Positions 6,945 through 23,300 of a DNA stretch of 64,000 bases are shown here, one piece after another (within the stretch, counting starts at the first letter, position 1; each line of letters starts with the position of its first letter). The stretch lies in contig NZ_JAHCST010000008.1 of the NCBI RefSeq assembly GCF_018476525.1, positions 124,001 through 188,000 on the forward strand, written 5' to 3'. The DNA comes from Acrocarpospora catenulata. GTDB lineage: Bacteria; Actinomycetota; Actinomycetes; Streptosporangiales; Streptosporangiaceae. The position numbers and the translations under genes were made by a program. Under the pieces are notes generated by a model. That model did not search any database and had not been told where the DNA came from. It saw only the letters and a program-made list of their open reading frames with translations.

Positions 6945-7025
6945 GTGGGGGCGGGCCTCCTTCGCAGCTCTGGCGTCACCTTGACGGGAGGACGGCGGGC
7001 CGGGTAAGGGTCGGACGGCATGCCG

Positions 7026-7047
7026 GGAAAGGACCAAGGTCCTTTCC
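7026..7047. promoter_or_regulatory. DevR/OsdR-like box 3, near-perfect palindrome
   Basis: Core AAGGACCAAGGTCCTT, extended by matching bases on both sides and symmetric except for the central AA. It lies between the divergent acyl-CoA synthetase-like and phosphoketolase genes and is the most symmetric of the four copies. Confidence 0.6.
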
Positions 7048-7085
7048 CCAGGGCGAACGCGCGGCGGCGAGGAACCACGCCAACT

Positions 7086-7103
7086 AGTGACCAACGTCCC
7101 TAT
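7086..7103. promoter_or_regulatory. DevR/OsdR-like box 4 at the phosphoketolase promoter
   Basis: Core GTGACCAACGTCCCT, centred about 42 bases before the phosphoketolase ATG. No Shine-Dalgarno sequence precedes that ATG, so the box would sit near the -35 region of a leaderless transcript, the position expected for a DosR-type activator. Confidence 0.55.
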
Positions 7104-7136
7104 TTCCCGGCGCACTCCGGCTTGACGATCAGAACT

Positions 7137-9461
7137 ATGGACACCCTGGAGAGAATCGACGCGTACTGGCGTGCGGCCAACTACCTGTCCGTGGGGCAGA
7201 TCTACCTGCTGGACAACCCGCTGCTGACCGAGCCGCTCAAGCCCGAGCACATCAAGCCGAGACTGCTGGGCCACTGGGGAACCACACCGGGCCTGAACTT
7301 CTGTTTCGCCCACCTGAACCGCGTGATCTCCGAACGCGGGCAGGACATGATCTACATCGCCGGTCCCGGGCACGGCGGCCCGGCGGCGGTGGCCCACGCC
7401 TGGCTGGAGGGCACCTATTCCGAGGTATATCCGTATGTGTCGCAGGATGTCGTCGGGATGCGCCGCCTGTTCCGCCAGTTCTCCTTCCCTGGCGGCATTC
7501 CCAGCCACGTCGCCCCGGAGACCCCCGGTTCCATCCATGAGGGCGGCGAACTGGGCTACTCCCTCGCCCACGCGTACGGCGCCGCGTTCGACAACCCGGA
7601 CCTGGTGGTGGCCTGTGTGATCGGCGACGGCGAGGCGGAGACCGGCCCGCTGGCCGCCAGCTGGCACTCCAACAAGTTCACCGACCCCGCCAAAGACGGC
7701 GTCGTGCTGCCGATCCTGCACCTCAACGGCTACAAGATCGCCAACCCCACGGTGCTCGCCCGCATCCCCACCCCCGAACTGATCGCCCTGCTCGAAGGGT
7801 ACGGTTACCGGCCGTACCTGATGGAGAGCGCCGACCCGGTGGCCGCCCACTCGCTGATGGCCGACACCCTGGACCAGGTCTTCGACGAGATCGCCGCCTA
7901 CAAGCAGGGCCGGGCCGAGCGGCTGCCGATGATCGTGCTGCGCACGCCCAAGGGCTGGACCGGCCCGCACGAGGTCGACGGCAAACCGGTGGAGGGAACC
8001 TGGCGCTCCCACCAGGTGCCGCTGGCCACGGTACGGGAGAACCCGGCCCACCTGGCCATGCTGGAGGAGTGGATGCGCTCCTACCGGCCGGAGGAGCTCT
8101 TCGACGCCGGCGGCCGCCCGGTGCCCGAGGTCCTGCAGACCGTACCGGCCGGGAACCTGCGGATGAGCGCCAACCCGCACGCCAACGGCGGCATCCTGCT
8201 CCGCCCGCTGGCGCTGCCCGACTTCCGCGACTACGCCGTCGAAGTGCCGGAACCGGGGGTCCAGCTGAGCGAGCCCACCCGGGTGCTCGGCCGCTGGGTC
8301 CGCGACGTCATCACCGCCAACCCGGACAACTTCCGCCTGATGGGCCCCGACGAGACCGACTCCAACCGGCTGTCGGCCGTCTTCGAAGTCACCGACCGGG
8401 CCTGGCACGCCCAGATCCTGCCCACCGACCAGAACCTGGCGCTCGGCGGCCGGGTCATGGAGGTGCTCAGCGAGCACCTCTGCCAGGGCTGGCTGGAGGG
8501 CTACCTGCTGACCGGCCGGCACGGCCTGTTCAACTGCTACGAGGCGTTCATCCACATCGTGGACGCGATGTTCAACCAGCACGCGAAATGGCTGGACATC
8601 GCGAGGGAGATCCCCTGGCGCCGCCCGGTGGCCTCGCTCAACTACCTGCTCTCCTCGCACGTCTGGCGCCAGGACCACAACGGCTTCAGCCACCAGGACC
8701 CGGGCTTCCTGGACGTGGTGGTGAACAAGAAGGCCGCGGTCGTCCGCGTCTACCTGCCCCCGGACGCCAACACGCTGCTCTCGGTGGCCGACCACTGCTT
8801 CCGGTCGCGCGACTACGTCAACGTGGTGGTCGCCGGGAAGCAGCCCGTGCTGGACCTGTTCAGCATGGAGGAGGCGATCACGCACTGCACCCGCGGCCTG
8901 GGCATCGTGGAGTTCGCCTCCAACGACGCCGGCACCGAACCCGACGTGGTGCTGGCCTGCGCCGGGGACGTGCCCACCCTGGAGACGCTGGCCGCCGCCG
9001 CGCTGCTCCGCGACCGCCTGCCCGAGCTGAAGGTCCGGGTGGTCAACGTGGTCGACCTGATGCGCCTCCAGCCGCCCACCGAGCACCCGCACGGTCTGCC
9101 GGACGCCGAGTTCGACGCGCTGTTCACCGCCGACCGGCCGATCATCTTCAACTTCCACGGCTACCCGTGGCTGATCCACCGGCTCGCCTACCGGCGCAAC
9201 GGCCACCACAACATGCACGTGCGCGGCTACAAGGAGGAGGGCACCACCACCACGCCCTTCGACATGGCCATGCTCAACGACATCGACCGCTTCCACCTGG
9301 TCATGGACGTGATCGACCGGGTCCCCGGGCTGGCCAGGACGGCGGCCCACCTGCGCCAGGAGATGGTGGACGCCCGGCTGCGGGCTCGCGCGTACACCCG
9401 GGCGCATGGGGAAGACCTGCCCGAGATCCGCGACTGGACCTGGCAGGTCACCGGAGCATAA
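7137..9461 (+). CDS. xfp: xylulose-5-phosphate/fructose-6-phosphate phosphoketolase
   Basis: 774 residues, slightly under the usual 790-800. A TPP enzyme that splits xylulose-5-P or fructose-6-P with phosphate to acetyl phosphate. It starts [20 protein letters not shown], matching the family N-terminus, which supports ATG 7137; the open frame to 7020 runs through the promoter. TPP-site motifs include [28 protein letters not shown] and [19 protein letters not shown]. No ribosome site is visible, so leaderless translation is likely. Its 3' end overlaps selD on the other strand by 14 bases. The neighbouring acyl-CoA synthetase-like protein and shared operator boxes suggest stress or low-oxygen control. 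Confidence 0.95.
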
Positions 9462-10431
9462 GGGGGTGTTCCCCCGGGGGCGTGAGCTCGCCGATGACCG
9501 GCGCCCCCGGGATCTCCCCGGCGATCAGCAGGCCCCCGGAGGTCTGCGCGTCGGCCAGCAGGAGCAGGGTCTCCTCGTCCACGCCGCCCGGGTCGAGGTG
9601 CTCGGCCACCCAGCCGAGATTGCGCCGGGAACCGCCGGGCACGAACCCGTCCCGTACGGCCTGGCGGGCCCCGTCCAGCAACGGAATCGCGCCAGTGTCG
9701 AGCACCGCGGTGACCCCGGAGGCGCGGGCCAGCTTGAACAGGTGGCCGAGCAGCCCGAAACCGGTCACGTCGGTGGCGCAGGCCACGCCCGCCGCCAGCG
9801 CGGCGGCGCTCGCGTTCGCGTTGAGCGCGGTCATGGTGGCGACGGCCTGCGGGAAGACCTCGCCGGTCGCCTTGTGGCGGTTGTTGAGCACGCCCAGGCC
9901 GAGCGGCTTGGTGAGGGAGAGCGGCAACCCCGGCCGGCCCGCGTCGTTGCGCATCAGGCGGGCGGGGTCGGCCAGGCCGGTGACCGCCATGCCGTACTTG
10001 GGCTCGGTGTCGGTGACGCTGTGGCCGCCCGCGACGTGGCAGCCCGCACTGGCGGCCACCGCCGCGCCGCCGCGCAGCACTTCGCGGGCGAGTTCGTACG
10101 GGAGGGTCTCGCGGGGCCAGCAGAGCAGGTTGAGCGCCACCAGGGGGCGGCCGCCCATCGCGTACACGTCGGAGAGCGCGTTGGCGGCGGCGATGCGGCC
10201 CCAGTCGTACGGGTCGTCCACGACCGGCGTGAAGAAGTCGGCGGTGCTGACGACGGCGGTGCCGTGCTCGATCCGTACCACGGCCGCGTCGTCCCCCGAC
10301 TCAAGGCCGACGAGCAGGTCGTCGCCGCCGGGAGTGGTCAGACCCGCGTCGGCCAGCACGTCCTCCAGCTCACCGGGTGGGATCTTGCAGGCGCAGCCGC
10401 CGCCCTGGGCGTACTGGGTCAGCCTCATCAT
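9448..10431 (-). CDS. selD: selenide, water dikinase
   Basis: 327 residues. Makes selenophosphate, the selenium donor for selenocysteine, from selenide and ATP. The N-terminus [13 protein letters not shown] carries the essential Cys-x-Cys-Lys motif; the catalytic position is Cys rather than Sec. Other signatures are [59 protein letters not shown] and DAQTSGGLL. The start is one of two adjacent ATG codons at 10431/10428. It is divergent from selA with only 47 bases between starts, so the promoters face away from one compact region. A complete sel gene set shows that this genome makes selenoproteins. Confidence 0.96.
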
Positions 10432-10478: not shown

Positions 10479-11765
10479 GTGACTGATCCGCGTCGGCAGA
10501 TTCCCCGGACGGACGCCGTGCTGGCCGATCCCCGGTTCGCCGGGCCCACGGAGGTGCACGGGCGGGAGCGGGTGAAAGCCGCGGTCACCACGGCGCAGCG
10601 GCGGGCCAGGGACGGGGAGATCGACCCGGCCCGGGTGCCGGAGGCGGCGCTGGCCGCGCTGGCGGGCGGCGGGCCGCGCCGCGTGATCAACGCCACGGGG
10701 GTGCTGCTCCACACCAACCTGGGCCGGGCGGCGCTCTCCGCGCCCGCGCTGGCGGCGGTCCGCACGGCGGCGGGGGCGACCGACGTGGAGCTGGACCTGG
10801 CGACCGGGCGGCGCGGCCGCCGCGGCCGGGGCGCACTGGCCGCGCTCGCGGAGGCGGTCCCGGCGGCCGAGGCGGTGCACGTGGTCAACAACAACGCGGC
10901 GGCGCTGGTGCTGGCCGCCACCGCGCTGGCCAGGAACCGCGAGATCATCATCAGCCGGGGCGAGCTGGTGGAGATCGGCGCGGGCTTCCGCCTTCCCGAG
11001 CTGCTGGCCTCCACCGGCGCCCGATTACGCGAGGTCGGCACCACCAACCGCACCTCCGTCGCCGACTACACCGCCGCGATCGGCCCCAGGACCGCGTTCG
11101 TCCTGAAGATCCACCCGTCCAACTACCGGGTCGAGGGCTTCGCGGGCACGCCGCCGGTGCACGAGCTGGCCGGGCTTGGCGTGCCGCTGGTCGGCGACAT
11201 CGGCTCCGGCCTGCTCCGCCCCGAACCCCTCCTCCCCGACGAACCGGACGCGGCCACCTGGCTGAAGGCCGGGGCCGACCTGGTGACCGCCAGCGGCGAC
11301 AAGCTGCTCGGCGGCCCCCAGGCCGGGCTGCTGCTCGGCCGCGCCGACCTGGTGGAACGCCTGCGCTCGCACCCGCTGGCCAGGGCGCTCCGGGTGGACA
11401 AGCTCACGCTCGCGGCCCTGGAGGCCACTCTCACCCACACCGCCAACCCCACCCGCGCCGCACTCACGGCGGACCCGGGCACGCTCCGCCGCCGCGCCGA
11501 CGCCCTGGTGGTACGGCTGGGCGCGGCCGGGGTGACCGCCCAGGCCGTCGACACCACGGCGGCGGTCGGCGGCGGGGGCGCCCCCGGGGTCGCCCTGCCC
11601 AGCGCGGCCGTCGCCCTGCCGATCGCCCTGGCCGACCCGCTGCGGGCCGCCACCCCCGCCGTGCTGGGGCGTGCCGACGGCGGGCGTTACCTGCTCGACC
11701 TGCGGGCGGTCGCCCCGGAGGAGGACGACGAGCTGTTCGCGGTGGTGACCGGCGTATGCGGGTGA
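10479..11765 (+). CDS. selA: L-seryl-tRNA(Sec) selenium transferase
   Basis: 428 residues. A PLP enzyme that converts Ser-tRNA(Sec) to Sec-tRNA(Sec) with selenophosphate. The family start pattern (RQIPRTDAVL), RVINATGVLLHTNLGRA, VHVVNNNAAALVLA and the PLP-lysine segment SGDKLLGGPQAG are all present. The start is GTG 10479, with little room for a leader after the divergent selD promoter. The last 10 bases overlap selB, so the two are translationally coupled. Confidence 0.96.
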   Translation: MTDPRRQIPRTDAVLADPRFAGPTEVHGRERVKAAVTTAQRRARDGEIDPARVPEAALAALAGGGPRRVINATGVLLHTNLGRAALSAPALAAVRTAAGATDVELDLATGRRGRRGRGALAALAEAVPAAEAVHVVNNNAAALVLAATALARNREIIISRGELVEIGAGFRLPELLASTGARLREVGTTNRTSVADYTAAIGPRTAFVLKIHPSNYRVEGFAGTPPVHELAGLGVPLVGDIGSGLLRPEPLLPDEPDAATWLKAGADLVTASGDKLLGGPQAGLLLGRADLVERLRSHPLARALRVDKLTLAALEATLTHTANPTRAALTADPGTLRRRADALVVRLGAAGVTAQAVDTTAAVGGGGAPGVALPSAAVALPIALADPLRAATPAVLGRADGGRYLLDLRAVAPEEDDELFAVVTGVCG

Positions 11766-13453
11766 TCGCCACCGCCGGACACGTCGATCACGGGAAGTCC
11801 ACGCTGCTGCGGGCGCTCACCGGGATGGAGCCGGATCGCTGGGAGGAGGAGCGGCGGCGGGGGCTCACCATCGACCTCGGGTTCGTGTGGCGCGGCGGGC
11901 TGGCCTTCGTGGACGTGCCCGGGCACGAGCGGTTCATCGGGAACATGCTGGCCGGGGTGGGGCCGGCGCCCGCGGTGCTGTTCGTGGTGGCGGCCGACGC
12001 CGGATGGTCCGTGCAGTCCGGGGAGCATCTGGCGATCATCAACGGGCTGGGCATCTCCCGGGGGGTGCTCGCGGTGACCAGGGCCGATCTGGCGGATCCG
12101 GGGCCGGTACTGGCCGACTGCCGGGAGCGGCTGCGCGGGACCAGCCTGGCGGGCGTTCCCGCGCTCGCGGTCAGCGCGGTCACCGGGGACGGGCTCAACG
12201 AGCTGCGGGCGGCGCTGGAAGGGCTGCCGGTGCCTGAGCAGGATCCGGGCGCGGAGGTGAGGCTCTGGATCGATCGGGCGTTCACCGTCGAAGGCCGGGG
12301 AACCGTGGTGACGGGGACGTTGGGCGCGGGCGTCATCCGGGTGGGCGACCGGCTCACCCTCCGGGGCGAGTCCGTATATGTCAGGGGATTGCACAGCCTG
12401 AACCAGCCGTGCGAGGAGGTGGCCGGGCTCGCGAGGGTCGCCGTGAACCTCCGGGGGTCCAGCCGTCCCCGTCGAGGGGACACGCTGGTCACCCCGGACC
12501 GATGGCTGGCCGTCTCCCAAGCCGATGTCCGGATTTATCCTGCCGAAAAGGTTCCCGAGCAGGTGATCTGGCACATCGGGACGGCGGCGGGAGCGGCCAG
12601 GGTGCGACCGCTGGGCGACGACGTCGCGCGGGTCGCGCTCGGCGAGGCCCTCCCCCTGCGCATCGGCGACCGGGCCCTGCTGCGCGACCCGGGCAGCCGC
12701 CGCGTCTGGGCGGTCACCGTACTCGACGTACGGCCACCGGAACTGCGGCGGCGCGGGGCCGCGCGGGCGAGGGCGGCCGAGCTGGCCGAGGTGGACGGCA
12801 CCCCGGACGGCGCGGCCGAACTGCGGCGGCGCGGCCTGGCCAGGCGGGACGAACTGGCCGCGATGGGCGCCCCCGTCGCGGCGGAACCCGTGATCGGCGA
12901 ATGGGTGGCCGACCCCGGGCACTGGGCGAGGCTGCGCGCACGGCTGGTCGAGATCGTGACGGCGCACGCCGCGAACGATCCGCGCGACCCGGGCCTGCCC
13001 GCGGAAACCGTCCGGCAGGCGCTCAACCTGCCGGACCGTGCGCTGGTGGACGCCCTCGCCGACGGCACGCCGCTTGGCCGCTCCCGGGGTCGGCTCACCG
13101 CCGCCGCGCCGACCTTGGCCCCCGGCATTGCCCGCCTGCACCAGGACTGGGCCGACCATCCGTTCGCGGCTCCCGACAGCACCCGGCTGGCCGAGCTCGG
13201 CCTGGACATCCGCGCCCTGGCCGCCGCCGAGGCGGCCGGACGGCTCACCCGGCTCACCCCCGAGGTGGTGCTCCCGCCCGGTGCCGTGGACCGGGCGCTG
13301 GCCGTCCTGGCCGGGCTGCCCCAGCCGTTCACGGCGGCCGACGCCCGCAAGGCGCTGGCCACCTCGCGGCGGGTGGTCATCCCCCTGCTCGAACATCTGG
13401 ACGGCAGGGGGCACACCCGCCGGATCGACGGCAGTCTGCGGGAGATCGTCTGA
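11756..13453 (+). CDS. selB: selenocysteine-specific translation elongation factor
   Basis: 565 residues. A GTPase that delivers Sec-tRNA(Sec) to UGA codons marked by a SECIS hairpin. G1 is AGHVDHGKSTLL, the switch region RRGLTIDLGFVW precedes G3 DVPGHERFIGNML, and G4 reads TRAD, a variant of NKxD common in SelB. EF-Tu-like domains 2 and 3 follow, then winged-helix repeats that bind the SECIS (last 200 residues, ending SRRVVIPLLEHLDGRGHTRRIDGSLREIV in several short motifs). It overlaps selA by 10 bases and is followed 15 bases later by the tRNA-Sec gene. Confidence 0.95.
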   Translation: MRVIATAGHVDHGKSTLLRALTGMEPDRWEEERRRGLTIDLGFVWRGGLAFVDVPGHERFIGNMLAGVGPAPAVLFVVAADAGWSVQSGEHLAIINGLGISRGVLAVTRADLADPGPVLADCRERLRGTSLAGVPALAVSAVTGDGLNELRAALEGLPVPEQDPGAEVRLWIDRAFTVEGRGTVVTGTLGAGVIRVGDRLTLRGESVYVRGLHSLNQPCEEVAGLARVAVNLRGSSRPRRGDTLVTPDRWLAVSQADVRIYPAEKVPEQVIWHIGTAAGAARVRPLGDDVARVALGEALPLRIGDRALLRDPGSRRVWAVTVLDVRPPELRRRGAARARAAELAEVDGTPDGAAELRRRGLARRDELAAMGAPVAAEPVIGEWVADPGHWARLRARLVEIVTAHAANDPRDPGLPAETVRQALNLPDRALVDALADGTPLGRSRGRLTAAAPTLAPGIARLHQDWADHPFAAPDSTRLAELGLDIRALAAAEAAGRLTRLTPEVVLPPGAVDRALAVLAGLPQPFTAADARKALATSRRVVIPLLEHLDGRGHTRRIDGSLREIV

Positions 13454-13468
13454 GATAGGGTGCCGGAC

Positions 13469-13564
13469 GGAGGCGTGCAGGTGCCTGGTGGCCCTCCCGG
13501 TCTTCAAAACCGGTGGCGCCGAGTAGCTCGGCGCGGCGGGTTCGATTCCCGTCCGCCTCCGCCA
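13469..13564 (+). tRNA. selC: tRNA-Sec (anticodon UCA)
   Basis: About 96 bases including an encoded CCA end. The acceptor stem pairs GGAGGCG (13469-13475) with CGCCTCC (13554-13560), followed by discriminator G and CCA. The anticodon arm CCGGT-CTTCAAA-ACCGG carries TCA at 13504-13506. A long variable arm (CGCCGAG/CTCGGCG) and the T arm CGGG-TTCGATT-CCCG follow. The long variable arm and UCA anticodon are specific to tRNA-Sec. Its position just after selB completes the selAB-selC unit. Confidence 0.97.
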
Positions 13565-13569
13565 CCTAA

Positions 13570-13660
13570 AGAAGGTTATTCAAAAGCTCGCCCGTTGATC
13601 GTGTCACCCGAGGCAGGTGGCTCGCTTCAAGGGCGCCGGGCTCCTTTTGAATAACCTTCT
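13570..13660. terminator. large AT-rich inverted repeat, bidirectional terminator or small mobile remnant
   Basis: Perfect 17-base arms: AGAAGGTTATTCAAAAG (13570-13586) and its complement (13644-13660), separated by 57 GC-rich bases. The arms sit between the 3' end of selC and the stop codon of the convergent membrane protein gene, whose TGA begins at the arm's outer edge. The AT-rich arms stand out from their surroundings. A shared terminator is the simple reading; a miniature element with terminal repeats is possible. Confidence 0.55.
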
Positions 13661-14718
13661 CAGTGCCGGGCGCTGCCAGGCAGGGCGATCTCCGCCATGC
13701 CTGGGTACTCGCCGATGACCTGGTCGCCGACGCGTACCTGCTGCCGCCCGTTCTCCTGGTCGCCCGGCATCCGCACGGTCGCGTAGCCGTCCCTGGTCGG
13801 GCCCATGGCGTAGTCCCCGTCCGGCAGGACGGTGTACTGGACACGGTTGCCCGTGGTGTCGAATTCGGCCACGGCGACCTTCTGCTCGTCGGTGTACTCC
13901 AGGACGAAGATGCGGCCGCCGCTGACCTGGACGGACAGGCCGTGGTCGGCGTCGGCGAACACCCCGGCGGGGGAGGCCGTGAGGGTGATGTCCGTCCTGT
14001 CGACGCGCAGGGTCACCCGTTTCCGTTCGGCGTCGCCGTACTGGGACTCGTCGAGGAGCACCAGCGCGCCGGACGGGAGGATGCCGACCGGTTCGTACCC
14101 GGCGGACGGGGTGAGCGTGGTCTGCTTGCCGGTGGACAGATCCACCTGCAGGTACCCGCTGACGTCGCCGCTCTGGTGGTAGCCGAGGATCAGGCGCCGC
14201 GAGTCGGCCGACCAGACCCAGGGGCTGAACGCGCCGCCGGTCCCGATGGCGGGGACCTGGACGACCGTGTCCCCCAGCAGGTCCCTGAGCTGGTAGCCCG
14301 CCAGGGTGGGCAACCCCAGCCAGCGCCCGTCGGGGGAGAGCGTCATGTTCCCGGACGGGGTGACCGTATGGGGGCCCAGCGCGAACTCCCGTCCGTCGGT
14401 GAGGGACAGCAGGGTGGGGCAGGTCGCCCGGCAGGGTGTGTAGACCGCCGCCCCCTGCCCCACCGGGCCGCTCACGGGCAGCGCGGCGTAACCGGGGGTG
14501 GTGGCGACGCTGAGTGTCGGCGAGGCGGCGATCTCGCCGCCGTTCCCGCCGGTCTGGAGCAGCAGCGTGGCCACCACGAGACCGGCCGCGGCCAGCCCGG
14601 CGGCCCCGGCGCTCTGCCGTACCGTACGGCGACGGCGGAGCGTGGCCAGGGCGCGGTCGGCGTCGGCGTAGTCGCGGGACTCCCGCTCCAACTGAAGGTA
14701 CGTGTCACGCAGGTTCAC
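13660..14718 (-). CDS. membrane-anchored beta-propeller protein, probable sigma-factor partner
   Basis: 352 residues. The N-terminal 35 residues are charged and cytosolic (YLQLERESRDYADADRALATLRRRR), followed by one membrane span around 37-57 (GAAGLAAAGLVVATLLLQ) and an extracytoplasmic domain. That domain has WD40/TolB-like blades: MTLSPDGRWLGLP, WVWSADSRRLILGYH, YLQVDLSTGKQTTLTP, TRDGYATVRMPGDQ. The start overlaps the stop of a SigE-family sigma factor (ATGA). Genes in this place usually encode sensors or anti-sigma proteins of the paired sigma factor. No zinc-finger anti-sigma motif is seen, so the partner role rests on context. Confidence 0.7.
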   Translation of the reverse strand: MNLRDTYLQLERESRDYADADRALATLRRRRTVRQSAGAAGLAAAGLVVATLLLQTGGNGGEIAASPTLSVATTPGYAALPVSGPVGQGAAVYTPCRATCPTLLSLTDGREFALGPHTVTPSGNMTLSPDGRWLGLPTLAGYQLRDLLGDTVVQVPAIGTGGAFSPWVWSADSRRLILGYHQSGDVSGYLQVDLSTGKQTTLTPSAGYEPVGILPSGALVLLDESQYGDAERKRVTLRVDRTDITLTASPAGVFADADHGLSVQVSGGRIFVLEYTDEQKVAVAEFDTTGNRVQYTVLPDGDYAMGPTRDGYATVRMPGDQENGRQQVRVGDQVIGEYPGMAEIALPGSARH

Positions 14719-15218
14719 GAGTGCACCCTTTCCAGCAGCTGAGGCGCCACTCTCTTCAGACGTTTGAGCGCGTCGTGTTTGTGTCGCTTGACCGTGCCGA
14801 CCGAGCAGCCCATCCGCACGGCGACCTCCGCCTCAGGCAGGTCCTCGTAGAAGGTCAGATAGAGCGCGATGCGCTGTTTGGCGGTGAGCACGCCCAGCGC
14901 CTTCCGCAGCACGATCTTCAGGTCGGTCTCGGCGGCCGGATCCTCGTGGTCCCGGGTCTCCGGCAGTTCGGCGGTCGGCAGGATGACCAGCCGCCGGGGG
15001 CGCCGCCAGGTGCGCAGCTGGTTGAGCATGATCTTGCGCACGTACGCCTCGTGGTCGGCCACGTGGGTCAGCTTGCGCCACCGGGCCGCCGCCTTGACCA
15101 GGGTCTCCTGGAGGAGTTCCTCGGCCTCGCCGTGGTCGCCGGTGAGCAGGTAGGCGGTCCGCGACAGGGCCAGGCCGCGCGCGGCGACGAACTCTCGGAA
15201 ACTGTCGGCGTCGGTCAC
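14715..15218 (-). CDS. SigE-family RNA polymerase sigma factor
   Basis: 167 residues from the preferred GTG at 15218, which has AAGGAG 12 bases upstream; the frame is open to a GTG at 15248 without a site. Region 2 reads FREFVAARGLALSRTAYLLTGDHGEAEELLQETLVKAAARW. Region 4 reads LTAKQRIALYLTFYEDLPEAEVAVRMGCSVGTVKRHKHDALKRL, with a helix-turn-helix. It belongs to the short SigE-type (SCO-like) group of extracytoplasmic-function sigma factors in actinomycetes. Its stop overlaps the start of a membrane beta-propeller gene, its likely regulator. Confidence 0.9.
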   Translation of the reverse strand: MTDADSFREFVAARGLALSRTAYLLTGDHGEAEELLQETLVKAAARWRKLTHVADHEAYVRKIMLNQLRTWRRPRRLVILPTAELPETRDHEDPAAETDLKIVLRKALGVLTAKQRIALYLTFYEDLPEAEVAVRMGCSVGTVKRHKHDALKRLKRVAPQLLERVHS

Positions 15219-15285
15219 CCCGGCTGGCCTCTCCTTGGACGGCGTCACCCAATGAAGACTCCGGCTCCGTCCAGAAGGTTGAGGA

Positions 15286-15651
15286 TCAGACCGTGACCAG
15301 CGCCAGGCCGAGCACGAGCACCGCCGCCGCCCGGGACCAGGTCCACGCGGACGCCTTCTCCTGGACGCCGAAACACTGGCAGGACGCCGACTCCCCGGCC
15401 ACCAGCAGATACGTCTGCGCCGCCGTGAAGCCCAGCCCGAGCAGCAGGCCCGCGATCCCCGCGAGCAGATTCGGCAACGGGGAGAAGGCGACGGCCGCGG
15501 TTCCGGCCTCCGCGATCACGATGGCCACGGGGGCGGTCCAGCCGCGCACCCCGAACACCGCCAGGCTGTCGCGGAAGCCGCGGAAGGCACGGAGCTTGCC
15601 CGTGACGGCGAGCAGGAGGATCGCCCCCAGGGCGTACCTGACCAGGATCAT
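15286..15651 (-). CDS. MauE-type membrane protein (DoxX-like redox-associated)
   Basis: 121 residues, with four predicted membrane spans (3-20, 40-56, 62-82, 104-120). It carries the C-x-C-F-G motif (SCQCFG) characteristic of MauE-like proteins, which with MauD are needed to form disulfides in the methylamine dehydrogenase small subunit. The start overlaps the stop of the upstream selenoprotein candidate (15648-15651, ATGA). It is the last gene of a five-gene operon that includes a TlpA/MauD-like thioredoxin. Substrate is presumably the Cys-rich exported protein encoded at 16377-16901. Confidence 0.8.
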   Translation of the reverse strand: MILVRYALGAILLLAVTGKLRAFRGFRDSLAVFGVRGWTAPVAIVIAEAGTAAVAFSPLPNLLAGIAGLLLGLGFTAAQTYLLVAGESASCQCFGVQEKASAWTWSRAAAVLVLGLALVTV

Positions 15652-16376
15652 GGGAGCACCAGCGGCACCAGCATCGGGATGATCAGCAGCACGAAGAGCG
15701 GGCGGAGCCGGGGCAGCGTGAAGTAGAAGGCGGTGTCGGCGGACATCTTGCTCCGGGCCGTCACGAAGGTGAGCAGCATCACCGTCCGGCCGAGCGCGAA
15801 TCCGGCGCCGGCCAGCAGCGCCTCGGGCCAGGAGGCCAGGAACATGACGGCGATCGCCATGACGTGCGGCAGCGCGGTCGGGGAGTAGGTCCGCATTCCG
15901 GTGCCCATTTCCATGCCGAACTGCACCGAGCCCCAGAAAGGAATCCTGGTCACGAACTGCGGCACCAGCCGGGCGTTCTGCGGAATGGGGAACTTGAGCA
16001 CCCCGATTTCCTGGAGTAAAAGCACCACCGCCGCCGCGGCCACGAATATCCGCAGCCAGAGAATCGGGAACGGCGCGCGCAGCAGCGAGCCGAGGAGCAG
16101 GAAACCGAAAGCGGTCGCCATCGCTCCGATGAACAATCCGGCGACGAAGCCGGAAACGTCAGAGCCCCGCCGGACCGACGAGGACAGCACCCAGGCGCTG
16201 TTGAGGCTTCAAACGGAGCCGGACAGCGAGAACCCGGCCACCAGCGCGGCCACCAGCCAGGTGAAGCCGCTGGTCCCGGCGGCGTGCGCCCCCGCCGCGA
16301 GCAGGGCCGCCTCCGCCGCCACGATCAGCACCAGACCTGGTGCCAGCAGGCGTACGGAGGCGGTCGCGTTGCCCAT
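15648..16376 (-). CDS. candidate selenocysteine-containing integral membrane protein (in-frame UGA at codon 56)
   Basis: A 242-residue frame from ATG 16376, which follows the upstream TAG stop with no gap. Codon 56 is UGA (16209-16211); the same frame then continues for 187 codons to the overlap with the mauE-like gene. Residues 10-30 and 37-55 are hydrophobic, so the Sec would sit at the end of span 2 (SLSGSV-U-SLNSAWVL); further spans lie near 70-92, 100-118, 158-180 and 220-240. The protein has no Cys at all, so Sec would be its only redox residue. A SECIS-like hairpin lies 25 bases after the UGA and selABCD is within 3 kb. A GTG at 16190 could start a shorter protein, but it has no ribosome site and would leave the coupled 55-residue piece pointless. 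A nonsense mutation is the main alternative. Family not recognised. Confidence 0.72.
16165..16183 (-). promoter_or_regulatory. candidate bacterial SECIS hairpin
   Basis: On the coding strand CCTCGTC-GGTCC-GGCGGGG forms a 7-bp stem (two G-U pairs) with a 5-base loop starting GG, beginning 25 bases after the UGA. The loop GGUCC resembles the GGUCU loop of E. coli fdhF, and the 32-base UGA-to-loop distance fits the usual 16-37 range for bacterial SECIS elements. A second hairpin (ACAGC/GCTGT, 16184-16201) lies directly between the UGA and this stem. Confidence 0.6.
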
Positions 16377-16901
16377 CTAGATGGCGGTCCGGCAGATGGA
16401 GAACCGGCCGGAGCCGCTGCTGCCGCAGGTCACGGAGTAGTAGTAGCCGTCCGAGCACTTCCGGCGGAGGCTGGAGGTGCTGCCGCCGGTCCAGCGCCAG
16501 GCGTTCCTGCCGTCGCAGGTGTTGGAGTAGGAGGTGTAGTTGATGCTGACGCAGGTCCCGGAGTAGCCGTCGTCCCGGTGCCAGGTGTTGGTGCAGTTGT
16601 CCGAGCCGTAGTACGCGCTGGACGGTGTGCACACCGAGGTGGCGTTGGCGTACCCGTGGCAGCCGTCGGTCCAGATGGTGGTGTAGACGACGGCGGCGGC
16701 GCTGCGCGGGCGGGCGCCCGGCAGCAGGTCCAGCGCGCCGAGCCCGGCGGCCGTGGCGGCGCCGAACGCCATCCCGATCATGCGGCGACGGCTCCAGCGG
16801 GGGTTGACCACGCCCATCCGGGACGGCAGCGCCCCCTCTGGCCGCTCGTCCGCGCTCGGGATCTGGTCGAGAATCGAGCTTGCAGGACCGGTCATGGTCA
16901 C
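16377..16901 (-). CDS. Tat-exported Cys-rich small protein, methylamine-dehydrogenase light-chain-like
   Basis: 174 residues. A cytosolic leader is followed by SRRRMIGMAFGAATAAGLGALDLL, a twin-arginine signal, with likely cleavage after ARPRSAAA (about residue 70). The mature 105 residues hold 8 Cys, several Trp and many Ser/Thr/Tyr (WTDGC, NTWHRDD, NAWRW, SICRTAI). Size, Tat signal, many disulfides and the flanking MauD- and MauE-like genes recall MauA, the methylamine dehydrogenase small subunit, but sequence likeness is weak and no heavy-chain gene is present. GTG 16901 overlaps the TlpA stop and has AAAGGA upstream. It is probably the client of the operon's redox proteins. Confidence 0.6.
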   Translation of the reverse strand: MTMTGPASSILDQIPSADERPEGALPSRMGVVNPRWSRRRMIGMAFGAATAAGLGALDLLPGARPRSAAAVVYTTIWTDGCHGYANATSVCTPSSAYYGSDNCTNTWHRDDGYSGTCVSINYTSYSNTCDGRNAWRWTGGSTSSLRRKCSDGYYYSVTCGSSGSGRFSICRTAI

Positions 16902-17407
16902 GTGAGTGATTCCTTTCGTCTCGCTACCGCCCGTTCCACCAGTTCACCCAGGGCCTCCCCGGACCCGACCGGGGTGGTGAAGACCACCAGGCCGTCCGGC
17001 CCGACCACCAGCAGGGCGGGGGTGTAGGGCACCGTGATCGACCGCCAGACGGCCGGATCCTTGATCACCCGTACCGTCTCGGGCAGGTTCCTGTCGAAGC
17101 CGGGGTCGTCGGAGACCACGGTGAAGGAGTGGTCGGCGGGCAGGCCGGGCGCCAGCTTGCCGATGGCCAGCAGCAGGTCCTCACAGACCGGGCACTGCCT
17201 GTTGATCTTCACGACCAGGGTGGTGCCGTCCGTTGTGGCCAGGCTGGATTTGGCCTGCTCCTCCTGGCCGGCGCCGAGCCGCAGCCCGACCCCGTGGTAG
17301 GTGGCCAGCTCCAGCTCGCGCACCCGGCGGTAGAGGCCCGCCCCGGCCGCGAACATCAACGCGACCAGCAGGCCAAGGACGATGACGGCGGCCGTCAGCG
17401 GATCCAT
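16898..17407 (-). CDS. membrane-anchored TlpA/MauD-like thioredoxin
   Basis: 169 residues. An N-terminal span (AAVIVLGLLVALMFAAGAGLY, 5-25) anchors a thioredoxin-like domain outside the membrane. The active site is CPVC (NRQCPVCEDLLLAI, about residue 92), matching the CPxC of MauD; the cis-Pro region is VPYTPALLVVGPDGLVVF. It would form or rearrange disulfides in exported proteins. It starts one base after the stop of the 252-residue gene and its stop overlaps the Cys-rich gene. The order MauD-like, MauA-like, membrane protein, MauE-like resembles a reduced mau operon. Confidence 0.82.
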   Translation of the reverse strand: MDPLTAAVIVLGLLVALMFAAGAGLYRRVRELELATYHGVGLRLGAGQEEQAKSSLATTDGTTLVVKINRQCPVCEDLLLAIGKLAPGLPADHSFTVVSDDPGFDRNLPETVRVIKDPAVWRSITVPYTPALLVVGPDGLVVFTTPVGSGEALGELVERAVARRKESLT

Positions 17408-17408
17408 G

Positions 17409-18167
17409 TCAGCCGTTCCAGTCGATACGCCTGACCTTGGTCAGGAATCCGGCCGCGGCCTCGCTCGGATTGGCCGCCGCGGCGAGCGTGCGGACCGAGA
17501 CGCCCGGCCGGGACTCCCTCGGGGCGTCCCACGGGCTCAGCGTGGCCACCACGGTCGGGGTGACCATGAGCAGGGGCTGGGCGGTGGCGTTGGGGGTGCT
17601 GGTGATCCGCCAGATCTCGCCCGCCTGGGCGACGTAACCCCGCCATTTGGGGACGCTGCCGGCCGCGGCCTGTTTGGACTGGACCTGGAGGGTGCCGACG
17701 CCCGCGATGGTCTGCAGGTACATGGACGACTGCAGGTCGAACCTGGCGCCGGGGTCGGCGGTCATGCCCTCGGGCGTGTCGGTGAAGGCGACTCTGCTGA
17801 AGGTCTCCACGATGTCGGAGGATTCCCACTGCGGCGCGTAGAACATCCCGTGCGCCATGTGCCAGGGCCCCAGCCAGGCCGCCCAGCGGGCATCCGACGG
17901 CTTGTCGCAGTCGTAGACCACCACTTCCCCACCGGCCAGCGAGAATCGTTCCCGCTCCCGGCCGCCGACCGACCAGATCGCCGATCCCAGCGACGTGATC
18001 GGGGCGAGTTCCAGCGCCCAGACATCGGCCGTGGTATTACGCCCCCCGTATTTGGGCGTGTAACGCACGTGCCCGCACCAGGTGTTCAGCGCGTCTTTCT
18101 CGGAATCGTCTACTTCGAGTTGGATGACGGAGTTGTCGATAGCGCGTACTTGCGATACATGGGCCAT
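17409..18167 (-). CDS. hypothetical protein, first gene of the mau-like operon
   Basis: 252 residues, no signal peptide or membrane span, so probably cytosolic. It begins MAHVSQVRAIDNSVIQLEVDD and ends GFLTKVRRIDWNG; it holds few Cys (WCGHVRY, VYDCDKP), several aromatic clusters (GPWHMAHGMFYAPQWESSD) and a C-terminal part with VATLSPWDAPRES. I do not recognise the family. AGGGG lies 8 bases before the ATG. It is separated by one base from the next gene, so it is co-translated with the exported redox proteins. It could be an enzyme, a binding protein or a structural partner of the Cys-rich protein; nothing in the sequence decides this. Confidence 0.75.
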   Translation of the reverse strand: MAHVSQVRAIDNSVIQLEVDDSEKDALNTWCGHVRYTPKYGGRNTTADVWALELAPITSLGSAIWSVGGRERERFSLAGGEVVVYDCDKPSDARWAAWLGPWHMAHGMFYAPQWESSDIVETFSRVAFTDTPEGMTADPGARFDLQSSMYLQTIAGVGTLQVQSKQAAAGSVPKWRGYVAQAGEIWRITSTPNATAQPLLMVTPTVVATLSPWDAPRESRPGVSVRTLAAAANPSEAAAGFLTKVRRIDWNG

Positions 18168-18360: not shown

Positions 18361-18915
18361 TCAGGTGTTCGGAGGAGAGGTGTCGAGGAGTTCCAGCATG
18401 TACTTGATTTGGGCGGTGCGGGAGGTGTCGATTTTGGTGGCCAGGTCGAGGGTGCCGGGGTTGGTGCCGCCGCCCTTCTCGTAGCGGGCCAGTTGGACGC
18501 CGTCGTCCTGGTGGGCGATCAGGGTGTTGAGGAGGCGGCGTTCGAAGTCGGAGGGCTTGGCGTCGCGGAGGCGGGCCAGTTCGGACTTGGTGGTCTGGGG
18601 CATGCCGCCGTGGGCGTGGTGGTCGTCCGGGTTGGCGGTGAGGGGTTGGTCCCAGTCGCGGAGCCAGCGGATCATGGTTTGGACTTCGGTGTCCTGGGTG
18701 GCGGCGATGGCGGCGGCCAGGGTTCGTACCTCGGGGCGTACCTCGCGGGCTTCGGCGAGTTTGGTGATGTCCAGGCCCTGGCGGTTGTGGGCGACCATCA
18801 TCTGCAGAAACATCACGTCCGAGGCGTTGACGGCCGGTTCCGGCTGGTCGGTCCCGCAACCGGAGCTCAGCAGGGCGGTGGTGGCCAGGGCAACGAGCGC
18901 GACGTACCGCCGCAT
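18361..18915 (-). CDS. DUF305 lipoprotein
   Basis: 184 residues. A signal peptide (MRRYVALVALATTALLSSGC) ends in a lipobox-like SSGC, so it is probably a lipoprotein. The DUF305 fold is a ferritin-like four-helix bundle; visible motifs are MFLQMMVAHNRQGLDITKLA, the His-rich DDHHAHGGMP and LLNTLIAHQDDGVQLARYE. DUF305 proteins are often found with copper proteins. A second DUF305 gene lies at 22758-23300, on the other side of the LPMO and chitinase genes. It is downstream of the LPMO gene on the same strand but a strong hairpin separates them. Confidence 0.88.
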   Translation of the reverse strand: MRRYVALVALATTALLSSGCGTDQPEPAVNASDVMFLQMMVAHNRQGLDITKLAEAREVRPEVRTLAAAIAATQDTEVQTMIRWLRDWDQPLTANPDDHHAHGGMPQTTKSELARLRDAKPSDFERRLLNTLIAHQDDGVQLARYEKGGGTNPGTLDLATKIDTSRTAQIKYMLELLDTSPPNT

Positions 18916-18972: not shown

Positions 18973-19833
18973 TCAGACGCGCTTCCAGAGCGCGGGCACG
19001 TTGGGCGGCTCCCAGCCGACCAGCGAGGTGTGCGCCTGGAGGCACTGGTAGCTCAGGCCGCCGTAGGTGACCCGGGCGCCGACCGCGTACGCCACGCCGG
19101 GAGCCCAGGTGCCGCCCGGCTGCTGGGTCGTCGTCGGGGTCGGGGTGGGCGTCGGGGTCGGGTTGCTGGGGGTCGGGGTGGGCGTCGGAGTCGGGTTGGT
19201 ACCGCCGCCGAAGTCCACGTCCGAGCAGGTGTAGAAGGCCTCGTTGCTGCCGACCACGCGCTGCCAGATGGAGTAGAGGATGTGCCGACCGGTCCGCTGC
19301 GGGATGTTGATCGTCCAGTTGGTGAACGTGGTCGGGTTGAAGTTGGTGAACGTCTGGATGTGCACCAGGTCCGACCACTTCAGCGGCATGCTGGGGTTCC
19401 ACCCCGCGCGGGTGATGTAGAACTCGAAGTTGCTGTTGGAGTGCGGCGCGGTGGCGTGGTAGGTGATCGTTCGCGGTCCGGCCGAGAACGGCGTGGCCGG
19501 CCAGTCCGAGCGAACCAGGTCAAGACCGCGGTACTTGTCGCGGCCCGCGCTGCACAGCTTCCCGTCCGGGATGAGCGTGCGGTGCTGGCCACCGGCCTCC
19601 AGCAGGGAGACCTCGTTCCAGTCGTAGAACGCCTGGGTGCCCCCCGCCGCCACGGCGGCCTTGCAGGCGGCGGACTTCGGGTTCTCCGGGCCTTCGTTCT
19701 TGCAGACGTAGACACGGCTCGGCGGGTTGGACATGGTGCCGTGGGCGGTTGCCGGGCTGGACGGCAGCACCACGAGGATCGTGCCGGCCATCAGGCCGAC
19801 GGCGGCGGACGCCACCCTTTTGCGTAGGTACAC
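18973..19833 (-). CDS. AA10 lytic polysaccharide monooxygenase with C-terminal CBM5/12, chitin-active type
   Basis: 286 residues. The signal peptide is 1-30 (ends SSPATA), so mature His31 becomes the N-terminus and, with His131 (ATAPHSNSNFEFY), forms the copper histidine brace. The AA10 domain runs about 31-208 and includes HGTMSNPPSRVYVC and FYTCSDVDFGG. A TPTPTP linker joins it to a CBM5/12 domain (about 243-286, WAPGVAYAVGARVTYGGLSYQC ... WEPPNVPALWKRV) that binds chitin. It oxidatively cleaves crystalline polysaccharide outside the cell. The GH19 chitinase upstream on the same strand is a natural partner. A palindrome at 19950-19966 lies in its promoter. Confidence 0.93.
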   Translation of the reverse strand: MYLRKRVASAAVGLMAGTILVVLPSSPATAHGTMSNPPSRVYVCKNEGPENPKSAACKAAVAAGGTQAFYDWNEVSLLEAGGQHRTLIPDGKLCSAGRDKYRGLDLVRSDWPATPFSAGPRTITYHATAPHSNSNFEFYITRAGWNPSMPLKWSDLVHIQTFTNFNPTTFTNWTINIPQRTGRHILYSIWQRVVGSNEAFYTCSDVDFGGGTNPTPTPTPTPSNPTPTPTPTPTTTQQPGGTWAPGVAYAVGARVTYGGLSYQCLQAHTSLVGWEPPNVPALWKRV

Positions 19834-19949
19834 CTGACTTTCCTCCTTGGGAGGTCTTCCGGGTACGCGGGCCTGGCCCGTAGGCCGGGCCCATGACGAA
19901 GGTTCGCCTTTGCCGAGCGGGGTGACGCCGCCAGCTTCAGCATCTATTG

Positions 19950-19966
19950 AAAGGAAACCTTCCTAA
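19950..19966. promoter_or_regulatory. TTAGGAAGGTTTCCTTT-type palindrome in the LPMO promoter
   Basis: AAAGGAAACCTTCCTAA on the + strand, 117 bases upstream of the LPMO start. It resembles the TTAGGAAAGTTTCCTAA palindromes known upstream of secreted polysaccharide-degrading genes in Streptomyces and relatives. The cognate repressor is not in the window. Confidence 0.5.
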
Positions 19967-20010
19967 GAATTAAATAGAACATGAGCCTCCCGACCGGCGC
20001 AAGAGCCGGT

Positions 20011-21087
20011 TCAGCAGGACAGGTTGTTGCCCGGGGAGACCCCCAGGATGCCGACGAACCGCTGGTAGGCGTTGATCCGGCTCTGCACCTGGGCCGGGTT
20101 GCGCCCGTTGCACTCCAGGCTGCCGTTGATGCTCCGGATGGTCTCGCCGAAGCCCGCGCCGTTCACCATCGCGTTGTGCGGGGTCATCGTGCCGGGGCCG
20201 CTCTGGGTGTTCCAGTACCAGAGCGCGGTCTTCCAGGCCACCGCGGCGTCGTTCTGCACCAGCCAGGGGTTGCCGAGCAGGTTGAGGCCGAGCGCGTCGC
20301 CGGCCGCCTTGTAGTTGAAGTTCCAGCTCAGCTGGATCGGCCCGCGCCCGTAGTAGGCCGCCTGTCCGGCCGGGCACCCGTACGGCTGGCTCAGGTCACA
20401 GTAGTGCGGGTAGTTCGCGGTGTTCTGCTCGACGATGTGCACGAGACCTCCGGTCTCGTGGTACGCGTTCGCCAGGAAGGCCGCCGCCTCCTGCTTCCGC
20501 ACCGTGTCGCTCCCGGTCTTGGCGAAGGCCGGGTACGCGCTGAGCGCCGCCACCAGTCCGCTGTAGGTGTAGAAGGAGTTCCGGCCCGGGAACATCTGGT
20601 TGAACTGCGCCTCGCTGACCACGAAACCGCCGGTCGGGGGCGGGTTGGTGGGCGGCGGGGTGCTGCCGCAGGTGTAGGGGTCCCAGTACCAGGTGCTGAT
20701 GGTCGGGTCGTACCCCGGGTTGTCGTGCTCGGCGATGTAGTACTGGCCGTTGGTGTAGCGCACGATGCTGCCGGCGGGATACCAGGTCCCGGCCTGCCAG
20801 TTCGGATGGTTGCAGCCACCGCTGGGCGGCGGGGTGGTGCCGCCGCCGCAGGCGCCCTGGTCGGCCCAGACGCCGGTGGTGCCGGGGGGCGCCTCGTTCT
20901 GGGTCCACCACTTGGCCAGCCAGTTCCGGCCGTTGTGGGAGGCCGTCATGCCGCCGGTGTACACCGCGGTGGCGTTCCAGGGGGTGGCGCAGGCCGCCGC
21001 GGCGGCCGGGGAGGATGGCAGGATCGTCGCCATCGCGCCCGCCGTCAGCAGGGCGGCGAACCATGCCATGATCCGTCTTCTCGTCAC
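20011..21087 (-). CDS. GH19 chitinase with two N-terminal CBM5/12-like domains
   Basis: 358 residues. Signal peptide about 1-31 (SSPAAAA), then two chitin-binding modules: 33-78 (WNATAVYTGGMTASHNGRNWLAKWWTQNE) and 91-141 (WQAGTWYPAGSIVRYTNGQYYIAEHD), each followed by Pro/Gly-rich linkers. The GH19 catalytic domain spans about 156-358, with the catalytic segment FLANAYHETGGL, YYGRGPIQLSWNFNYKAAG and a C-terminal cysteine. It hydrolyses chitin outside the cell with inversion. The start is GTG 21087, with GGAAAGG 12 bases upstream. The LPMO gene lies 177 bases downstream, so the two probably act together. Confidence 0.94.
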   Translation of the reverse strand: MTRRRIMAWFAALLTAGAMATILPSSPAAAAACATPWNATAVYTGGMTASHNGRNWLAKWWTQNEAPPGTTGVWADQGACGGGTTPPPSGGCNHPNWQAGTWYPAGSIVRYTNGQYYIAEHDNPGYDPTISTWYWDPYTCGSTPPPTNPPPTGGFVVSEAQFNQMFPGRNSFYTYSGLVAALSAYPAFAKTGSDTVRKQEAAAFLANAYHETGGLVHIVEQNTANYPHYCDLSQPYGCPAGQAAYYGRGPIQLSWNFNYKAAGDALGLNLLGNPWLVQNDAAVAWKTALWYWNTQSGPGTMTPHNAMVNGAGFGETIRSINGSLECNGRNPAQVQSRINAYQRFVGILGVSPGNNLSC

Positions 21088-22761: not shown

Positions 22762-23300
22762 GACGGATCGCTCCGCGGTAGCTTGCCAAGTTCGTCCTGC
22801 CGGGACCGCGCCATGCTCGCCGCGAATTCCTTTGTGTCGGGATCGGCTCCGGAGTTCTGCTCCCCGTCCGCGACCAGCACCGACTGGCGGAGATACTCGC
22901 TGACGTGCACGGCGAATAGCCGGTCGAACGCGCGCTCCTTCACCTTGCCGAGAATCACCAGATCGTCCGGCGTCACCATGCCCGGAAGGTCATGACCGTC
23001 ATGGATGTCGGTCTCCGCGTTCCCACTCCGCCGCAGCAGTTCCCTGAGCCGCTCCAGCTGACTCTGGTGATCGCCACGCATCACCCGCGCGACCTCGACC
23101 ACCTGCGGATTGCCAGTCCGCTCCGGCACCGTGTCAAAGAGCCTGACCGCCTGCTCGGTCATCGGAATCAGCAGCTGCAACCAGGCCACGTCCGTCGCGT
23201 TGTACGACGAGACCGCAGCACTCGGCGCGGGAGGCGGAACCGCGGCCGCGGAACAGCCGGTGACCAGCACCAGCACCGCGCCGACCACGATCCATCGCAT
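22758..23300 (-). CDS. DUF305 lipoprotein, co-transcribed with flavocytochrome
   Basis: 180 residues. The signal MRWIVVGAVLVLVTGC ends in the lipobox VTGC. DUF305 features: TDVAWLQLLIPMTEQAVRL, VARVMRGDHQSQLERLRELL, a His-poor middle (DIHDGHDLPGMV) and the C-terminal helix FAASMARSRQDEL. It differs from the paralogue at 18361 by replacing the usual MMxxHNxQ with LLIPMTEQ, so some predicted metal ligands are lost. It precedes the ferric-reductase-like gene by a 4-base overlap, suggesting a surface redox or metal unit. Confidence 0.82.
   Translation of the reverse strand: MRWIVVGAVLVLVTGCSAAAVPPPAPSAAVSSYNATDVAWLQLLIPMTEQAVRLFDTVPERTGNPQVVEVARVMRGDHQSQLERLRELLRRSGNAETDIHDGHDLPGMVTPDDLVILGKVKERAFDRLFAVHVSEYLRQSVLVADGEQNSGADPDTKEFAASMARSRQDELGKLPRSDPS

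What the first reader, a model, noticed from the sequence alone, without database searches (positions are those of the whole stretch)
15648..16376. In-frame UGA with SECIS-like hairpin: candidate new selenoprotein family, an integral membrane protein
Seen: the frame from ATG 16376 abuts the upstream TAG, is interrupted only by UGA at codon 56 (16209-16211) and then overlaps the next gene, so the UGA is the only flaw in a tightly coupled operon. The hairpin CCTCGTC-GGTCC-GGCGGGG lies 25 bases after it, with a GG-start loop like that of fdhF and 32 bases from UGA to loop. selA, selB, selC and selD lie within 3 kb. The chain has no Cys, so Sec would be its only redox residue, beside a CPVC thioredoxin and a MauE-like protein. 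Known bacterial selenoprotein families do not, to my knowledge, include a polytopic membrane protein of this kind.
Basis: partly seen in the sequence, partly recalled or inferred. Interest (0 to 1): 0.93.

Follow-up and report, generated by a model that had tools for sequence, protein, structure and literature searches.

The report
Selenocysteine form of MauF membrane protein
A gene that looks broken by a stop codon is almost certainly an intact selenium-containing membrane protein, a relative of the little-studied MauF, found with similar neighbours in many actinobacteria, where it probably helps cysteine-rich exported proteins form their disulfide bonds.

Summary
The frame 15648-16376 (-) is open except for UGA at codon 56. 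Searches of 200, 394 and 198 genomes found relatives in 69 distinct genomes: 64 with an in-frame UGA, 4 with Cys, one truncated. The residue is Sec or Cys in 31 of 31 aligned rows. selA was found in all 64 UGA genomes (63 over cut-off, one contig-edge fragment) and in none of the 4 Cys genomes. A SECIS-like hairpin keeps six pairs in 31 of 31 sequences, with compensatory changes; codons there are constrained.

As a protein the family is not new: its profile matches Paracoccus denitrificans MauF (E 2e-23), U56 on MauF's WSPCG cysteine. A CxxC thioredoxin-like gene is nearby in 41 of 42 loci and a MauE-like gene in 36 of 42, usually with a Cys-rich protein gene (by eye). The own genome has no methylamine dehydrogenase light chain.

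Best reading: a selenocysteine MauF in a thiol-disulfide system maturing an exported Cys-rich protein. Selenoprotein status is near certain; substrate and electron direction are inferred. I found no report of MauF as a selenoprotein.

The parts
15648..16376 (-). Sec-MauF: 242-aa multi-helix membrane protein with in-frame UGA (codon 56)
   Evidence: AlphaFold2 model pLDDT 87.4, pTM 0.88, nine helices
16209..16211 (-). UGA codon read as selenocysteine; Sec or Cys in 31 of 31 aligned rows
16165..16183 (-). SECIS-like hairpin, loop GGTCC, 25 nt after the UGA
   Evidence: covariation; codon constraint
16184..16201 (-). first hairpin between UGA and the SECIS-like hairpin; its register differs between subgroups
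   Evidence: predicted fold; counted only in the distant group
15286..15651 (-). MauE homologue with CxC motif (SCQCFG), overlaps the Sec gene by 4 nt
   Evidence: Pfam PF07291 E 6.7e-16
16377..16901 (-). probable Tat-exported Cys-rich protein (8 Cys), the likely substrate
   Evidence: no match in Pfam or NCBIfam, nothing significant in the PDB
16898..17407 (-). thioredoxin-like CPVC protein with N-terminal hydrophobic stretch, MauD-like
   Evidence: own profile; the related group A8 from other loci matches P. denitrificans MauD, E 8.7e-28; no Pfam match for the window protein itself
17409..18167 (-). 252-aa protein of unknown function, first gene of the run; genes of similar size at this place in some near relatives
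   Evidence: by eye; no significant family
9448..10431 (-). selD-like ORF (Cys form)
   Evidence: recognised by eye; no family search
10479..11765 (+). selA
   Evidence: TIGR00474, 410 bits, at G000:C160:134494-135747
11756..13453 (+). selB-like ORF
   Evidence: recognised by eye; no family search
13469..13564 (+). tRNA-Sec (selC)
   Evidence: ARAGORN; Rfam RF01852, 80.7 bits

Best explanation
The gene encodes a selenocysteine form of MauF. SHOWN by computation: UGA codon 56 lies where MauF has its conserved WSPCG cysteine; Sec forms occur with selA and Cys forms without it in the genomes examined; the mRNA just after the UGA keeps a hairpin of SECIS type; and the gene lies with a CxxC thioredoxin-like gene and, mostly, a MauE-like gene. 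SEEN BY EYE: a Tat-type Cys-rich protein gene at most loci. INFERRED: SelB and tRNA-Sec insert Sec at the UGA. The Sec, which the model places at the start of a short helix (55-65), is the single redox residue of the protein. It exchanges electrons, through mixed selenenylsulfides, with the CxxC of the MauD-like protein and the CxC of MauE, so that disulfides in the exported Cys-rich protein are formed or corrected. It would work like the MauD-MauE-MauF accessory set of methylamine dehydrogenase (role of MauF recalled), but on a different substrate.
For: UGA: 49 of 49 family copies have one TGA; its place was checked in 34 of these 49 and in the outer relatives. Position: C/U in 31 of 31 rows including MauF; Cys in 5 of 5 plasmid-borne MauF proteins aligned. 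selA in 46 of 46 family Sec genomes (45 over cut-off, G184 a contig-edge fragment) against 115 of 200 over cut-off, hypergeometric 3.8e-12 for the 45; in 13 of 13 further phylum-level genomes and 5 of 5 class-level genomes outside the family with the Sec form; in 0 of 4 Cys-form genomes. selA lies within 15 kb in 16 of 49 family copies. SECIS: (4 pairs with double changes; score 0.285, shuffled mean 0.154, 0 of 500 as high). Codon constraint in the 15 codons after the UGA: 10 of 14 against 20 of 95, 7 of 13 against 26 of 101, 8 of 11 against 8 of 56 single-codon sites in three hand-picked groups. Homology to MauF: E 3.6e-24 and 2.1e-23. Partners: thioredoxin-like 41 of 42, MauE-like 36 of 42; fusion with MauE in L071 and L072; MauD match of group A8, E 8.7e-28. 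dN below dS on both sides of the UGA in 8 of 9 pairs.
Against: No experiment. The Cys-rich partner matched the MADH light chain in no test made and its model is poor (pLDDT 52.5), so the substrate role rests on position and Cys content. No MauE-like gene within 6.5 kb in 6 of 42 loci, and the Cys-form locus L092 had neither partner; the profiles were seeded from these same loci and no unrelated regions were searched as a control. In one pair (L012/L014) dN is about equal to dS before the UGA. In the distant group the second hairpin as drawn pairs in only 70.8% of cells. Mean folding z of the 51-nt region is only -1.05. No Rfam SECIS match.
Confidence: 0.78

Rival explanations
1. The UGA is an ordinary stop: sequencing error, pseudogene, or two separate short genes.
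For: A TGA between open stretches is common in this GC-rich window (49 cases in six frames); a GTG at 16190 could start a second ORF of 180 aa.
Against: In-frame UGA in 64 of 68 scorable genomes and Cys in the other 4; selA pattern; covarying hairpin; dN below dS on both sides in 8 of 9 pairs.
Confidence: 0.01
2. The UGA is decoded, but as another residue by a suppressor tRNA or leaky stop, not as Sec.
For: Read-through as such is all that the open frame shows.
Against: The aligned residue is Cys in the non-UGA homologues, and the UGA form tracks selA in the genomes examined; TGA also ends this very gene.
Confidence: 0.02
3. Sec-MauF is the membrane step of a reductive path: like CcdA/DsbD it carries electrons from cytoplasmic thioredoxin outward, to keep the MauD-like protein reduced for disulfide correction, rather than taking part in oxidation.
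For: Distant relation to CcdA profiles (E 4.6e-6 and 9.8e-6), with SPU on CcdA's first SPC; DsbD_TM match of L068, E 6.7e-4, below the family cut-off.
Against: The second CcdA cysteine is missing (Thr163 invariant in 31 of 31); the near family alone does not match CcdA, nor does MauF alone. MauE/DoxX proteins are thought to be quinone-linked (recalled), which favours oxidation.
Confidence: 0.35
4. Sec-MauF acts on a small molecule (sulfur or selenium species, peroxide) and the Cys-rich protein is not its substrate.
For: A listed selenoprotein family, YeeE/YedE, is a thiosulfate transporter family (PMC13188914 Table 1); no direct link to the Cys-rich protein exists.
Against: Neighbourhood with thioredoxin-like and MauE-like genes, fusion to MauE, and the same set beside a Cys form in a genome without detected selA (L097 of G567).
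Confidence: 0.12

Closest known systems
MauF, Paracoccus denitrificans (WP_011750949.1, NC_008688.1; mauFBEDA cluster)
   Same: Profile homology over 186-194 columns (E 3.6e-24, 2.1e-23); shares the invariant positions G154, G158, T163, R197; its WSPCG Cys aligns with U56; lies with mauE and mauD.
   Different: Cys instead of Sec; there the cluster holds methylamine dehydrogenase (MauB, MauA), whose light chain is not found in the own genome.
MauD and MauE accessory proteins (van der Palen et al. 1997, known to me only through passages of PMC7794033)
   Same: A MauE homologue (PF07291) and a thioredoxin-like protein of the MauD kind flank the Sec gene.
   Different: Gene order and substrate differ; in L071 and L072 MauE is fused to the Sec-MauF domain.
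CcdA / DsbD transmembrane domain (PF02683)
   Same: Weak profile similarity, SPU aligned to CcdA's SPC; CcdA 5vkv is Foldseek rank 2.
   Different: One redox residue instead of two; Foldseek match not significant (E 0.63); the window protein itself has no Pfam DsbD hit.
TsoB, rhodanese/DsbD fusion-like selenoprotein (NF045694; PMC13188914 Table 1)
   Same: Also a selenoprotein named after DsbD.
   Different: Two Sec (UxxxxU) and a rhodanese domain by the review's table; no match of the window protein to it at E <= 1.

Membership tests
Bacterial selenoproteins | In-frame UGA conserved in homologues, aligned with Cys elsewhere | tested here: met
Bacterial selenoproteins | SECIS-type stem-loop just downstream of the UGA | tested here: met
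   near group, 31 of 33 distinct sequences used, six pairs kept in all; distant group, 12 of 13 used, first hairpin kept, second only partly. No Rfam SECIS match
Bacterial selenoproteins | Sec-decoding machinery in the genome | tested here: met
   tRNA-Sec; selA; selB and selD by eye only
Bacterial selenoproteins | Selenium actually present in the protein | not testable with these tools
   needs 75Se labelling or mass spectrometry
MauF | Profile homology over most of the protein and the WSPCG-type Cys/Sec position | tested here: met
MauF | Encoded beside mauD-like and mauE-like genes | tested here: met
MauF | Encoded with methylamine dehydrogenase subunits (mauB, mauA) | tested here: not met
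   no PF02975 match in the own genome; Cys-rich group A9 against MauA E 0.14. The heavy-chain family was not searched genome-wide; the operon genes scanned gave no such Pfam match. So: a MauF homologue, not shown to be a methylamine-utilisation MauF
DsbD/CcdA transmembrane domain (PF02683) | Sequence or fold similarity | tested here: inconclusive
   (below cut-off)
DsbD/CcdA transmembrane domain (PF02683) | Pair of redox cysteines, one in each half | tested here: not met
   one Sec only; Thr163 invariant in 31 of 31; no Cys in the window protein
Methylamine dehydrogenase light chain (PF02975), for the Cys-rich partner | Match to the family model or to MauA | tested here: not met

The most novel reading that the evidence does not exclude
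Actinobacteria run a selenium-based maturation line for a large, undescribed set of Tat-exported Cys-rich proteins: a one-residue (Sec) MauF membrane relay with MauD-like and MauE-like partners, perhaps with a protein-derived cofactor in the product, as in methylamine dehydrogenase (the near family keeps two Trp, W111 and W113, in an NAWRW-type motif, invariant in the 17 rows). In some aerobic actinobacteria it may be the main reason to keep the Sec machinery (the 10 formate dehydrogenase-like matches in the own genome have no in-frame stop).
Probability: 0.35. Interest if true: 0.9.

Novelty: new variant of a known kind. Interest (0 to 1): 0.8.

Why it matters
It adds a selenoprotein family that occurs in several actinobacterial classes and is not in the 119-family list of a 2026 review or matched by the Pfam and NCBIfam models searched here, so annotation may cut it short. 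It points to the residue on which MauF works, a protein for which I found no described mechanism. It suggests a use of selenium in soil actinobacteria without an evident Sec formate dehydrogenase, and makes a one-residue membrane thiol relay directly testable.

Tried and rejected
Rejected: pseudogene or sequencing error; other decoding of UGA (see rivals). Methylamine dehydrogenase light chain as the identity of the Cys-rich neighbour looked attractive by eye (Tat leader, CPPG and W motifs) but failed Pfam, PDB-profile and hhalign tests. CcdA/DsbD as the family: only a weak link; MauF is far closer. The model of the Cys-rich protein is too poor to use. Rfam gives no SECIS match.

Slips mended on the way: L029 was out of frame in A1, corrected in A2. 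A first ORF walk used the wrong strand for minus-strand loci, redone. The gene caller is my own and crude; neighbour names rest and the family searches.

Literature: searches listed no paper on a MauF selenoprotein. I saw listings only, cut at 20 of 324, 25 of 33 and 15 of 41. PMC13188914: passages, and parts 1 and 2 of 3 of section 7 with Table 1. PMC12013277, PMC9312934, PMC7794033: passages only.

Full report
OBSERVATION. The frame runs from ATG 16376 to TGA 15648 on the minus strand and is interrupted only by TGA at 16209-16211. It abuts the upstream TAG and overlaps the downstream ATG by 4 nt. The read-through product has 242 residues and no Cys. tRNA-Sec and selA are nearby; the selB-like and selD-like ORFs were recognised by eye. 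That all four lie within 3 kb is not exact (2.1 to 5.2 kb). Open stretches on both sides of a TGA are common by chance in this window (49 cases), so the test is conservation.

CONSERVATION OF THE UGA. In 200 genomes of the same family, searched with the single protein, 46 have a relative, in 49 copies, and each copy has exactly one TGA. I checked the place of the TGA in 30 of these copies (37 loci, of which seven are named loci and three of those look like contigs already counted) and in four more; for the other 15 I have only the count. A profile (A2, 19 rows) found relatives in 18 of 394 class-level and 16 of 198 phylum-level genomes. Over the three searches these are 69 distinct genomes by my tally: 64 with UGA, 4 with Cys (G212, G302, G567, G678; loci L052, L051, L064, L059), and one (G220, L053) cut at a contig end before this position. 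In the outer relatives the motif is SPUG, GPUG or SGUG followed by xSM. For many of them the local match began after the UGA, so the table says no stop inside although the UGA is there; L069 shows two TGA, one of them, by eye, the stop of the gene before.

SELENIUM MACHINERY. selA is found in all 46 family genomes with the gene (45 over the curated cut-off, G184 with a fragment at a contig edge) and over cut-off in 115 of 200 genomes; hypergeometric 3.8e-12 for the 45. It is in the other 13 phylum-level Sec-form genomes and in G208, G240, G368, G458 and G479. It is not among the matches of the four Cys-form genomes, which are listed as 98 to 100% complete. In 16 of 49 family copies selA is within 15 kb, and by the coordinates within 7 kb of a Sec copy in 4 of the 5 class-level genomes outside the family (G208, G240, G368, G458). 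The own genome has 10 formate dehydrogenase-like matches, all below the family cut-off and none with a stop inside.

SECIS. From 67 UGA contexts 57 are distinct. For the near group I aligned 31 of 33 distinct 48-nt stretches (L056 and L057 left out because of a 3-nt deletion). Six stem pairs form in 31 of 31, the outermost of seven in 14 of 31; four pairs show changes on both sides; covariation score 0.285 against a shuffled mean of 0.154, none of 500 shuffles as high, slid versions at most 0.154 (RNAalifold agrees). The tool warns that related sequences can exceed every shuffle. The loop is GGTCC, GGTCT or similar; the likeness to the fdhF loop is recalled. For the distant group I aligned 12 of 13 (L069 left out): the first hairpin pairs in 98.6% of cells with a C-G to G-C swap in 5 of 12; the second pairs in 70.8% as drawn, RNAalifold does not predict it, and by eye some rows fold it in another register. 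Single-codon sites are enriched in the 15 codons after the UGA in three hand-picked groups (Fisher p 3e-4, 0.04, 2e-4). As a control, a hairpin of 5 bp or more at about the right place is in 55 of 57 Sec forms, 4 of 9 Cys forms and 39% of shuffles; mean folding z of the Sec forms is only -1.05.

FAMILY. No significant Pfam, NCBIfam, PHROG or PDB sequence match for the window protein or its profile. I fetched the mau cluster of P. denitrificans. Profiles of the family match its MauF with E 3.6e-24 and 2.1e-23 over 186-194 columns. U56 aligns with the Cys of WSPCGYSS, which is Cys in 5 of 5 MauF proteins aligned. Over 31 rows C/U56, G154, G158, T163 and R197 are invariant. In a FastTree tree of these rows the Cys forms L051, L052 and L059 group together, apart from L064 and MauF; several nodes are weak. 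A weaker link leads to CcdA (Foldseek rank 2, not significant); searches are negative, and CcdA's second Cys is missing. The model of the window protein is good (pLDDT 87.4, pTM 0.88).

SURROUNDINGS. In 42 loci (window, 7 named, 34 others, two of them on one fetched stretch) with flanks up to 6.5 kb, profiles seeded from these loci find a thioredoxin-like protein in 41 (a CxxC in each) and a MauE-like protein in 36; no unrelated regions were searched as a control. One subgroup of the thioredoxin-like proteins matches MauD with E 8.7e-28. Pfam MauE matches in the window, L087, L100, L071 and L072; the last two are fused to the Sec domain. By eye, a Cys-rich protein with a twin-arginine leader is encoded at most of the loci, in at least three sequence types; of the third type L098 carries LGFP repeats and L091 FG-GAP repeats after the Cys-rich part. 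MauA has a similar leader but the third type did not match it.

MECHANISM. Shown: Sec/Cys position, machinery, RNA structure, homology, neighbours. Inferred: Sec insertion, thiol-disulfide exchange with the MauD-like and MauE-like partners, and the Cys-rich protein as substrate. The passages of PMC7794033 say that Mau proteins mature methylamine dehydrogenase, that MauE is speculated to help form disulfides of its beta subunit and that the function of MauD is unclear; they also report mauE and mauD homologues in Streptomyces RiPP candidate clusters without other mau genes. Direction of electron flow is open.

NOVELTY. The 2026 review lists 119 families, none named MauF, and its main text has no word beginning with Actino. 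Nine literature searches listed no report; only open-licence PMC papers are held. Beyond Actinomycetota I looked only at plasmid MauF records (15 records found; five proteins aligned).

Noticed in passing
window 13570-13660: 91-bp element with 17-nt perfect inverted ends just after tRNA-Sec; two other two-ended copies (C12, and C89 with one mismatch in an arm) and a single arm with one mismatch (C93) in the genome. MITE-like.
   Followed up: partly
L083 (G368:C38): Two Sec-MauF genes of different subgroups on opposite strands about 4.5 kb apart, each with a thioredoxin-like gene before it.
   Followed up: partly
L071, L072: Single ORFs fuse the Sec-MauF domain to a MauE domain.
   Followed up: yes
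L059 (G678, Cys form): Has a CTCCG-GTCG-CGGAG hairpin after its Cys codon although selA was not found in the genome, perhaps a SECIS remnant or chance.
   Followed up: no
L098, L091: The Cys-rich part is followed by LGFP repeats (L098) or FG-GAP repeats (L091) in the same protein, which hints at a place at the cell surface.
   Followed up: no
window 13660-15248 (-): SigE-family sigma factor and a 352-aa protein downstream of mauE; a sigma-factor-like gene also lies before one copy in L083 (by eye).
   Followed up: no
window 18361-18915 and 22758-23300 (-): Two DUF305 proteins.
   Followed up: no
window 18973-21087 (-): LPMO_10 with CBM5/12 and a GH19 chitinase with CBM5/12.
   Followed up: no
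window 7020-9461 (+): Phosphoketolase (XFP) whose end overlaps the end of the selD-like ORF.
   Followed up: no
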